A DNA stretch of 64,000 bases, taken from the NCBI GenBank assembly GCA_963971285.1, contig OZ020256.1, positions 8,496,541-8,560,540 on the forward strand. Reading direction: 5' to 3'. Every line of letters starts with the position of its first letter. Position 1 is the stretch's first letter. Origin of the DNA: Astropecten irregularis. Taxonomy: Eukaryota > Echinodermata > Asteroidea > Paxillosida > Astropectinidae. Under the pieces are notes generated by a model, which saw only the letters and a list, made by a program, of their open reading frames with translations, had not been told where the DNA came from and ran no database searches. Below, one piece after another: positions 34,343 to 36,141 of this stretch. The position numbers and the translations under genes are program-made.

Positions 34343-34447
34343 CTAGACATCTATGGCTGTAGCAAACAGCACATAGGGCTTTTCCGCATATGATATTATA
34401 AATTGAATTACAAATATAAACTCATTGAAAAGTGAACAAAGAAAAAT

Positions 34448-34520
34448 TGACTGGAGCGGGATTCGAACTGGCGACCTCCTGAATACCGTACAGGCGCTCT
34501 ACCAACTGAGCCATCCAGCC
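34448..34520 (-). other. tRNA-like segment, inverted copy
   Basis: Inverted relative to the three that follow. Same cloverleaf, with GAACTGG in place of GAACCGG at the T arm on this strand. Confidence 0.6.
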
Positions 34521-34743
34521 CTAAAATAACTCAGTCAGTTTCCCTTGTGGTTATTTCACGAATATATTAATTAAAAAGCCGTATCCTCTTTGAGTGATCC
34601 CCCATTTGCCGTTCCCAGGTTGCAGCATTGTTGCGTGTATCATTGAAACGATCCCTGGGGTGTGGCGGTGTGTGCGTGGTTTCATGGCTTCTGACTGCCA
34701 AACGAACAAAGATAGTTGACTATTGGGGTCACCACCAACATAG

Positions 34744-34816
34744 GGCTGGATGGCTCAGTTGGTAGAGCGCCTGTACGGTATTCAGGAGGTCGCCGGTTCG
34801 AATCCCGCTCCAGTCA
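34744..34816 (+). other. tRNA-like segment, unit 1
   Basis: It folds as a cloverleaf. The acceptor stem GGCTGGA/TCCAGTC has one G-U pair and discriminator A. The D stem is GCTC/GAGC and the anticodon stem CCTG/CAGG has one extra mismatch. The loop is ACGGTAT, giving triplet GGT in the anticodon position, and the T arm GCCGG-TTCGAAT-CCCGC has one mismatch. Residue 33 is C where tRNAs have U. Its internal A and B boxes are intact. GGT is not a normal eukaryotic threonine anticodon, so a tRNA-derived repeat is more likely than a tRNA gene. Confidence 0.65.
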
Positions 34817-35066
34817 ATTTTTCTTTGTTCACTTTTCAATGACTTAAAATAACTCAGTCAGTTTCCCTTGTGGTTATTTCACGAATATATTAATTAAAAA
34901 GCCGTATCCTCTTTGAGTGATCCCCCATGTACCGTTCCCAGGTTGCAGCATTGTTGAGTGTATCATTGAAACGATCCCTGGGGTGTGGCGGTGTGTGCGT
35001 GGTTTCATGGCTTCTGACTGCCAAACGAACAAAGATAGTTGACTATTGGGGTCACCACCAACATAG

Positions 35067-35139
35067 GGCTGGATGGCTCAGTTGGTAGAGCGCCTGTACG
35101 GTATTCAGGAGGTCGCCGGTTCGAATCCCGCTCCAGTCA
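35067..35139 (+). other. tRNA-like segment, unit 2
   Basis: Sequence appears identical to unit 1, 323 bases downstream. Confidence 0.65.
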
Positions 35140-35389
35140 ATTTTTCTTTGTTCACTTTTCAATGACTTAAAATAACTCAGTCAGTTTCCCTTGTGGTTAT
35201 TTCACGAATATATTAATTAAAAAGCCGTATCCTCTTTGAGTGATCCCCCATGTACCGTTCCCAGGTTGCAGCATTGTTGCGTGTATCATTGAAACGATCC
35301 CTGGGGTGTGGCGGTGTGTGCGTGGTTTCATGGCTTCTGACTGCCAAACGAACAAAGATAGTTGACTATTGGGGTCACCACCAACATAG

Positions 35390-35462
35390 GGCTGGATGGC
35401 TCAGTTGGTAGAGCGCCTGTACGGTATTCAGGAGGTCGCCGGTTCGAATCCCGCTCCAGTCA
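35390..35462 (+). other. tRNA-like segment, unit 3
   Basis: Sequence appears identical to units 1 and 2, again 323 bases on. Confidence 0.65.
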
Positions 35463-36141
35463 ATTTTTCTTTGTTCACTTTTCAATGACTTAAAATAACT
35501 CAGTCAGTTTCCCTTGTGGTTATTTCACGAATACAAATATAAACTGTTATACAAAGAAAGGGATCCCTTAATGGACAAGTTAAAAAAAAGAATCATGATC
35601 CTAGGTCTTACCACTTTGGAATGAGGAGCTACTTCCTGTTTAACCAGAAGTAGAGGTCACAGAGGTCAAGCAATGTGTCACAAAGAAAGACCTTGCCTAA
35701 CATTGATATTTGGTGAAAGAATCATGATCCTAGCTCTTACCACATTTAAATGAGGAGCTACTTCCGATTTGACCGGAAGTAGAGGTCACAGAGGTCAAGC
35801 AATGTGTCACAAACAAAGACCTTGCCTAACAATCACTTTTGGTGAAAGAATGAACTTCATATCTCAAACCTTTGATTTTTTGATGATTTTTGAATATTTT
35901 AAATTCAAATCGCTTGTCACGTGACACCTGATGACGTCATGATGACGAAAAGTTTCGGGAGACAACTACCCTATATGGACTTCCTTCAGACCAAGTTTGG
36001 TTAAAATCGGTTGTTTAAAAATGACCAAAGTGGCGAGGAGAATGTCCCTGTGCATTGTCTATGGAAAATCAAAATGGAAGAAGAAGAAAAAATAAAAACA
36101 GAACAAAAGCAAAGGGTTTTCGCTCACGCGAAAAACCCCAA

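What the first reader, a model, noticed from the sequence alone, without database searches (positions are those of the whole stretch)
34423..35531. A multimer of a tRNA-like retroposon inserted as one piece
Exact 14-bp repeats flank a block holding one inverted head and three 323-bp head-to-tail units. Monomers elsewhere have their own duplication (13 bp at 29799-30071), and another tandem lies at 53299-54232. Insertion of a whole multimer is unusual for SINEs. It suggests that the mobilised template was itself multimeric, or that template jumping occurred during target-primed synthesis.
Basis: seen in the sequence. Interest (0 to 1): 0.7.

Follow-up and report, generated by a model that had tools for sequence, protein, structure and literature searches.

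The report
Tandem tRNA-headed retroposon with Penelope-type ends
A short non-coding mobile element carrying a tRNA-like promoter jumps into chromosomes as ready-made multi-unit arrays, and its ends match the unusual two-start-site copying used by Penelope-like retroelements, which would explain why it is so unlike an ordinary SINE.

Summary
A 1109-bp block (34423-35531) holds one inverted head plus 3.1 direct 323-bp units between exact 14-bp target duplications. The family is large: 7,356 matches to a 41-bp probe. Paralogous empty sites exist for three other inserts, one of 4.2 units, so multimers do insert as one piece. In 70 of 76 inserts the right end lies at one of two unit zones about 46 bp apart, A (near u106) or B (near u152-154). 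When an inverted head is present its outer end is the opposite site: 13 A/B plus 9 B/A, 0 same, among the 22 of 29 heads with both ends classed. 5' ends are spread round the unit. Two adjacent internal start sites, a 'tail' between them, extension of both target strands, tandems and AT-rich targets are what was shown for a Penelope-like element (PMC11167929). The genome also carries GIY-YIG/RT open frames of that kind. Best reading: a non-coding, tRNA-headed element copied by PLE-type machinery from an endless (multimeric or circular) RNA. The partner was not identified, and no hammerhead was found in the unit. A new variant of a known kind.

The parts
34409..34422 (.). left target site duplication TACAAATATAAACT
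   Evidence: exact copy at 35532-35545
34423..34521 (-). inverted head, unit positions about 108 down to 8; outer end at start site A
   Evidence: BLAST u112-8; outer end u108-109 once the duplication is removed
34522..34733 (+). direct run, first partial unit u112-323
34734..35056 (+). full 323-bp unit
35057..35379 (+). full 323-bp unit
35380..35531 (+). last partial unit u1-152, ending at start site B
   Evidence: right end u152-154
35532..35545 (.). right target site duplication
34448..34520 (-). tRNA-like sequence of the inverted head
   Evidence: ARAGORN Thr(GGT); Rfam 47.2 bits
34744..34816 (+). tRNA-like sequence (u11-83) followed by a T5 run at 34818-34822
35067..35139 (+). tRNA-like sequence followed by a T5 run at 35141-35145
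35390..35462 (+). tRNA-like sequence followed by a T5 run at 35464-35468
34840..34885 (+). tail u107-152, the stretch between start sites A and B (repeated at 35163-35208 and 35486-35531)
   Evidence: right ends of 70 of 76 inserts fall at its two edges; two weak hairpins u107-127 and u135-151
29798..30071 (-). truncated single-unit copy ending at A, with a 13-bp duplication at 29785-29797 and 30072-30084
53298..54212 (-). older partial tandem (about 1.3 direct units plus decayed pieces); no duplication found
62678..62896 (+). 5'-truncated copy ending at A
57600..57645 (+). fragment of the tail, u118-162

Best explanation
This is a non-coding retroposon whose 323-nt unit joins a tRNA-like head (Pol III type promoter) to a body that a Penelope-like (GIY-YIG/RT) machinery recognises. 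The machinery nicks both strands of an AT-rich site, mostly 11-16 bp apart. Each exposed DNA 3' end can prime reverse transcription at one of two internal sites, A and B, about 46 nt apart. One strand uses A and the other uses B, on the same template. Copying runs upstream without meeting an end, because the template is a multimeric or circular RNA, and stops at random. The longer product becomes the direct array. The shorter product, if any, becomes the inverted head. The two are joined and the nick stagger becomes the duplication. Shown here: the duplications, the two end positions, their mutual exclusion in classed inserts, template sharing between head and array, and the absence of a fixed 5' end. 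Inferred: that the enzyme is a PLE, that the template is RNA, and its topology.
For: Right ends: 31 A, 39 B, 6 other of 76 inserts, against 14% expected at random, p about 1e-52. With the duplication removed the ends lie within u100-113 for A (most often reaching u106) and u148-158 for B, except L031 at u143-146 (28 inserts with duplications). Heads: 29 in all; the 22 with both ends classed are 13 A-left/B-right and 9 B-left/A-right with no A/A or B/B, Fisher p 2e-6. Duplications: 28 of 70 against 17 of 4,796 control pairs, 26 of the 28 being 11-16 bp, and 84% AT against 62% in flanks. Empty sites with one copy of the duplicated bases: L016 (4.2 units), L058, L077; L021 and the window's own site are too diverged to be clean. 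64 direct-run starts are spread evenly, Rayleigh p 0.64. Template sharing: variants carried by all of at least 3 direct segments are also in the head, 10 of 10. Units within an array differ by 2.97 on average against 7.77 between arrays, 130 units, 0 of 300 label shuffles as low. PLE precedent: two adjacent internal RT start sites, the tail between them, both strands cut and extended, AT-rich targets (PMC11167929, parts 1-2 of 4 read); inverted pLTR, a 31-bp tail on one of the inverted pLTRs, 8-10 bp duplications (PMC3846280, passages). The genome holds at least 60 GIY-YIG matches, 31 of them with the same score of 29.9 bits, with open frames to 954 aa. One tandem pair 3,267 bp apart has a YIDD-type RT (RVT_1 E 1.8e-4 but under its cut-off), in frame with the GIY-YIG match by my arithmetic on the coordinates.
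Against: No significant sequence similarity between the unit and the one PLE whose 5' region was read (best E 4.2, 0.07; alignment of the start regions matched by 42 of 500 shuffles), so the partner is unidentified. No hammerhead motif in the unit. A run of at least four T, a likely Pol III terminator, lies upstream of both start sites in 118 of 130 units, five T in 115 (12 not matched by the test), so a normally terminated Pol III transcript could not be the template. 7 of 29 heads do not fit the A/B scheme and 6 of 76 right ends lie elsewhere. 42 of 70 inserts have no clear duplication. Over all diagnostic variants the head agrees at 11 and disagrees at 12; all 12 disagreements are at variants carried by a single direct segment.
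Confidence: 0.74

Rival explanations
1. Metazoan-retrozyme route: self-cleaved, ligated 323-nt circular RNA is reverse transcribed round and round by a PLE or LINE. This is the circular-template form of the best explanation.
For: Near-identical units with array-private variants, no fixed 5' end, and heads sharing the array's variants all fit one circle. Published animal retrozymes are 170-400 nt tandem repeats with target duplications over 4 bp (PMC7229834, passages).
Against: No hammerhead core on either strand. In L021 the head shares a unique base with the right-hand units while the left-hand units differ; L031, L033, L042 and, in the other direction, L014 also mix unit types. One circle cannot give this without later exchange.
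Confidence: 0.35
2. Short inserts of 1-2 units are made by retroposition, and long arrays grow later by unequal exchange inside the duplications.
For: L031 carries interspersed linked variant types in the order XYXYYXYo. In a sample not chosen for length, only 1 of 25 inserts reaches 2 units. 8 of 21 arrays with 3 or more full units have partly shared variants. Without L031, adjacent units are slightly more alike than distant ones (162 of 2000 permutations as low).
Against: 10 of 25 inserts in that sample already run past one unit, two of them (325 and 328 bp) only marginally, which needs an endless template anyway. Arrays of 3-6 units with almost no differences between units exist (L010, L014, L015, L023, L028). 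Over all 21 arrays adjacent units are not more alike than distant ones (845 of 2000 permutations as low).
Confidence: 0.15
3. LINE-mobilised SINE with L1-style twin priming, where the second primer anneals inside the RNA by chance homology.
For: tRNA-like head with A and B boxes, 11-16 bp duplications. One head (L062) starts at u36-39 within bases shared with its duplication.
Against: In 22 of 29 heads the outer end sits at one of the same two sites as the right ends and never at the same one within an insert. No A-rich tail is seen at the ends, and there is no significant pile-up of 5' ends at the tRNA start (5 of 64, expected 2.4, p 0.09).
Confidence: 0.1
4. tRNA-bearing TRIM (Helenus type) mobilised by an LTR retrotransposon.
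For: tRNA-like sequence inside a directly repeated unit, as in Helenus (PMC10886601, abstract and section list).
Against: Helenus makes 4-5 bp duplications; here they are 9-20 bp, 26 of 28 being 11-16. Ends lie at A or B in either pairing with an inverted head, not at fixed LTR ends.
Confidence: 0.01

Closest known systems
Penelope-like elements, Poseidon/Penelope clade (PAc of Anolis; Adineta Pen families)
   Same: Two adjacent internal RT start sites, a tail between them (30-40 bp there, about 46 bp here), both target strands extended, inverted 5' head, tandem copies, AT-rich targets (PMC11167929, PMC3846280)
   Different: No long open frame, no hammerhead found, tRNA-like promoter; no sequence link to a particular PLE was shown
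Metazoan non-LTR retrozymes (Cervera and de la Pena 2020)
   Same: About 300-bp non-coding units in tandem arrays with target duplications longer than 4 bp (PMC7229834, passages); PLEs suspected as partner
   Different: No hammerhead ribozyme found; an internal tRNA-like promoter, whereas retrozymes are said to lack promoters (PMC7761336, passages)
SMalpha of Schistosoma
   Same: SINE-like repeat, represented by a 335-bp member of a satellite-like family (PMC8490949, passages). That it has a Pol III type promoter is recalled and comes from no call
   Different: SMalpha carries a type I hammerhead; none was found here
Helenus TRIMs (Kojima 2024)
   Same: tRNA-like sequence inside the repeated part (PMC10886601, abstract)
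   Different: LTR-type element with 4-5 bp duplications

Membership tests
Penelope-like element (as non-autonomous member) | two adjacent RT start sites leaving a tail at one end | tested here: met
   70 of 76 right ends at A or B; 22 of 22 classed headed inserts (of 29 headed) use one of each
Penelope-like element (as non-autonomous member) | inverted head from extension of both target strands; partial tandems | tested here: met
   29 of 76 inserts headed; tandems
Penelope-like element (as non-autonomous member) | shares pLTR or start-site sequence with an autonomous PLE of the same genome | tested here: inconclusive
   one PLE 5' region read (L078, L080): no significant match; other PLE families not read
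Penelope-like element (as non-autonomous member) | RT plus GIY-YIG open frame in the element | tested here: not met
   no open frame of 150 aa or more in the insert; expected for a non-autonomous element
Penelope-like element (as non-autonomous member) | hammerhead motif in the repeat | tested here: not met
   Rfam up to E 5 and core regex on both strands
Metazoan retrozyme | type I hammerhead ribozyme | tested here: not met
   genome-wide search of RF00163 gave none, but its controls rang nowhere either
Metazoan retrozyme | circular RNA of unit length | not testable with these tools
   no transcript data
tRNA-derived SINE | internal Pol III A and B boxes | tested here: met
   A box intact in 128 and B box in 117 of 130 units
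tRNA-derived SINE | linear monomer with fixed 5' end at the tRNA start | tested here: not met
   64 run starts spread round the unit; 5 at the tRNA start, expected 2.4
tRNA-derived SINE | 3' end shared with a LINE, or an A-rich tail | tested here: inconclusive
   ends are at A or B and junctions show no A-rich tail; LINE 3' ends of this genome were not compared
Helenus TRIM | 4-5 bp target duplication | tested here: not met
   9-20 bp, 26 of 28 being 11-16
Helenus TRIM | PBS and PPT between LTRs | not tested
   -

The most novel reading that the evidence does not exclude
A PLE complex loads both start sites of one template, one per target strand, so that every two-sided insertion carries the tail at exactly one end; and ribozyme-free, tRNA-driven tandem RNAs are natural substrates that seed dispersed satellite arrays ready-made.
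Probability: 0.35. Interest if true: 0.8.

Novelty: new variant of a known kind. Interest (0 to 1): 0.62.

Why it matters
A review says that animal retrozyme repeats show no conserved motif that would help deduce which autonomous element moves them (PMC7761336, passage). Here a tRNA-headed relative without a detectable ribozyme carries a readable end signature that points to PLE-type machinery. The inserts give a rule, one A end and one B end on a shared template, that constrains how PLEs insert, a process with steps described as yet to be validated experimentally (PMC11167929). It also shows how tandem arrays can be born at a new site in one step, a possible seed for satellite DNA.

Tried and rejected
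Hammerhead or other known ribozyme in the unit: none found. A hidden fixed 5' end at the tRNA start, after A or after B: not significant. Head copied from a different RNA than the array: rejected where well-supported variants exist. Whether the head matches the first-copied units: mixed; L021, L031, L033 and L042 match the rightmost unit, L014 matches the left units, L019 is ambiguous, so linear multimer against circle stays open. Sequence homology of the start region with the PLE read: 42 of 500 shuffles as good, not claimed. Of eight PLE pieces in fetched loci, one ends near L080 position 96 and seven at 133-153: a lead only. Tail hairpins: not more stable than shuffles (124 of 200 as good); variants mostly keep pairing but no pair has a change on both sides.

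Sampling: the 39 arrays, and the window's own, come from one search, which ranks long matches first and scored 40 of 2,596 candidates, so they are biased to 3 or more units. The C1 sample (L048-L077) is the first 30 exact probe matches along contig C1 and gives 25 inserts after dropping repeats. Dropped before the counts of 76: L001-L008 and L049, L060, L065-L067, L069, L071, L074 as repeats of other loci (L060 is a second copy of the L059 site with its flanks), pieces under 90 bp, and pieces within 60 bp of a locus end; 6 of the 76 with N flanks were left out of the duplication test. A looser duplication score gave 39 of 70 against 21 of 830 control pairs, but it let in matches lying inside the element.

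Papers: PMC11167929 parts 1-2 of 4 and passages; PMC3846280, PMC7229834, PMC8490949, PMC7761336, PMC11722881 passages; PMC10886601 abstract and section list. In the listings of these searches I saw no PLE-mobilised tRNA-headed tandem element: (open-licence PMC papers only, at most 20 listed per search). Repbase was not available, so the family may be listed there. The host species was not identified.

Full report
Observation. The 14-mer TACAAATATAAACT was found at 34409-34422 and 35532-35545 and nowhere else on the + strand. Between them lie an inverted piece (unit positions about 108 to 8) and a direct run of 3.1 units of 323 bp. Each direct unit holds a 73-nt tRNA-like sequence (ARAGORN Thr, anticodon GGT; Rfam 52.8 bits), followed by a run of five T. 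The single-unit copy at 29798-30071 has its own 13-bp duplication. The copy at 53298-54212 has none that could be found.

Family. A 41-bp probe from the tRNA 3' half and the T5 run matches 3,687 times forward and 3,669 times reverse in the 476-Mb genome with up to 3 mismatches, against 0 for the reversed control. I read 76 inserts: those of 39 fetched arrays (picked, so biased to long arrays), those of the window, and the first exact probe matches along contig C1. In that last sample, which is not chosen for length, 10 of 25 inserts have a direct run longer than one unit (two of them, 325 and 328 bp, only marginally), 1 reaches two units or more, and 9 have an inverted head.

Insertion in one piece. 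28 of 70 inserts with readable flanks have a duplication scoring 9 or more, against 17 of 4,796 mismatched flank pairs; lengths 9-20, with 26 of 28 at 11-16; 20 of 37 for inserts of two units or more and 8 of 33 for shorter ones. Copies of host repeats without the insert show the duplicated bases once, for the 4.2-unit array L016 and the short inserts L058 and L077; the comparisons for L021 and for the window's own site are too diverged to be clean. Duplicated bases are 84% A+T against 62% in the flanks.

Two end sites. The right end lies in the A zone (unit 100-119) in 31 and in the B zone (144-168) in 39 of 76 inserts. In the 28 inserts with duplications, the ends with the duplication set aside fall within u100-113 for A (most often reaching 106...CTTTTCAA) and within u148-158 for B (most often 152-154...TTTCACGAA), with L031 at u143-146. 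29 inserts have an inverted head. In 22 both ends can be classed: 13 have A on the left and B on the right, 9 the reverse, none the same site twice (Fisher p 2e-6). The other seven are L019, L048, L062, L064, L073, L076 and the decayed copy at window 54011; L062 starts at u36-39, within bases shared with its duplication.

Endless template. The 64 usable direct runs begin all round the unit (Rayleigh p 0.64), with no significant pile-up at the tRNA start (5, expected 2.4, p 0.09), after A (2, expected 1.8) or after B (4, expected 1.8, p 0.10). A linear monomer with a fixed 5' end is therefore unlikely as the usual template.

Shared template. Across 130 full units in 47 arrays, units of one array differ by 2.97 on average and units of different arrays by 7.77; 0 of 300 label shuffles were as low. 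Where a rare variant is carried by all of at least three direct segments, the inverted head carries it too in 10 of 10 tests (L019 three, L028, L031, L034 two, L036, L040, L047; one of these variants is in 9 arrays, the others in 4 or fewer). At variants seen in one direct segment only it agreed in 1 of 13. Against a single circle: L031 mixes two linked variant types along 8.9 units, and in L021 the head shares a unique base with the right-hand units while the left-hand units differ; L033 and L042 are of the same sense, L014 of the opposite sense, L019 ambiguous. Adjacent units are not significantly more alike than distant ones (845 of 2000 permutations as low; 162 of 2000 without L031). I therefore leave multimeric linear RNA, circular RNA and some later exchange open, in that order.

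Mechanism. In the Anolis PLE, purified protein cuts and extends both target strands, starts reverse transcription at two adjacent internal sites of the RNA, and the 'tail' known from genomic copies is the stretch between them; targets are AT-rich; the hammerhead is not needed for insertion in vitro (PMC11167929). Rotifer Penelope copies have inverted pLTRs, a 31-bp tail on one of them and 8-10 bp duplications, and pLTRs appear to have moved an unrelated gene in trans (PMC3846280, passages). The element here shows the same set of marks. What is added is the count: one A end and one B end in every classed two-sided insertion, with both strands apparently copied from the same template. The simplest reading is that the complex engages both start sites of one RNA, one for each target strand.

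Machinery in the genome. At least 60 GIY-YIG matches are listed (150 of 158 candidates scored), 31 of them with the same score of 29.9 bits, with open frames up to 954 aa. For one tandem pair spaced 3,267 bp three short stretches were read: an N-terminal open frame (L078), an RT core with a YIDD motif (L079, frame 2; RVT_1 E 1.8e-4, below its cut-off), and the sequence upstream (L080). By coordinates the L078 and L079 frames agree with the GIY-YIG match; this is my arithmetic. L080 holds a motif that resembles a minimal hammerhead (GATCC-TGCTA-GGATC-GAAACGCGTC; my reading, not an Rfam match to a ribozyme). None of this is similar in sequence to the retroposon unit beyond chance (best E 0.07). 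The window itself has a GIY-YIG-like fragment at 2336-2725, by motif only (no Pfam match).

What it is not. No hammerhead core or Rfam ribozyme was found in the unit, so it fails the defining test of retrozymes. It has no fixed 5' end, so it fails a defining test of a SINE although its promoter boxes are intact (A box 128, B box 117 of 130 units). Its duplications are too long for a Helenus TRIM (PMC10886601 abstract). The T run upstream of both start sites (four or more T in 118 of 130 units, five in 115) means that a normally terminated Pol III transcript would end before A; how the mobilised RNA gets past it is not explained.

Noticed in passing
window 31489-31904, 33357-34040, 35587-35851, 36360-37029, 39909-40277, 56217-56507: Dispersed arrays of a 129-130 bp repeat, most units carrying AGGTCAnnnAGGTCA, the form of a DR3 nuclear-receptor site (name recalled; 16 matches inside these arrays, 1 at 11712). 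The insert sits between two of them.
   Followed up: partly
L057:1747-2489, also in L050, L059: Tandem arrays of about 60 bp related to the PLE upstream region (L080), which holds GATCCTGCTAGGATCGAAACGCGTC, resembling a minimal hammerhead.
   Followed up: partly
L009, L013, L017, L034, L043, L053, L068: Eight fragments of that PLE upstream region: one (L009) ends near L080 position 96 and seven end at 133-153, possibly the PLE's own start sites.
   Followed up: partly
window 2336-2725: Fragment with a GIY-YIG-like motif (GVYRIPCSCGKVYIGETG), probably a decayed PLE C-terminus; no Pfam match.
   Followed up: partly
L059 and L060 (C1:4795101 and C1:5502937): The same 374-bp insert with the same flanks stands twice, about 0.7 Mb apart in opposite orientation: a segmental duplication or assembly duplicate.
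   Followed up: no
window 54465-54622 and 55008-55146: Two arrays of a 16-bp repeat (GTCACTTCGCCCACGC) in opposite orientation close to the older tandem copy.
   Followed up: no
unit u107-151 (window 34840-34884): Two weak hairpins fill the stretch between A and B almost exactly; variants mostly keep pairing, but no pair has a change on both sides and the fold is no better than shuffles.
   Followed up: partly
window 26588-28921 and 41380-43395: Long open frames with RT, RNase H and integrase domains (Gypsy-like) and with a reverse transcriptase of non-LTR look.
   Followed up: no
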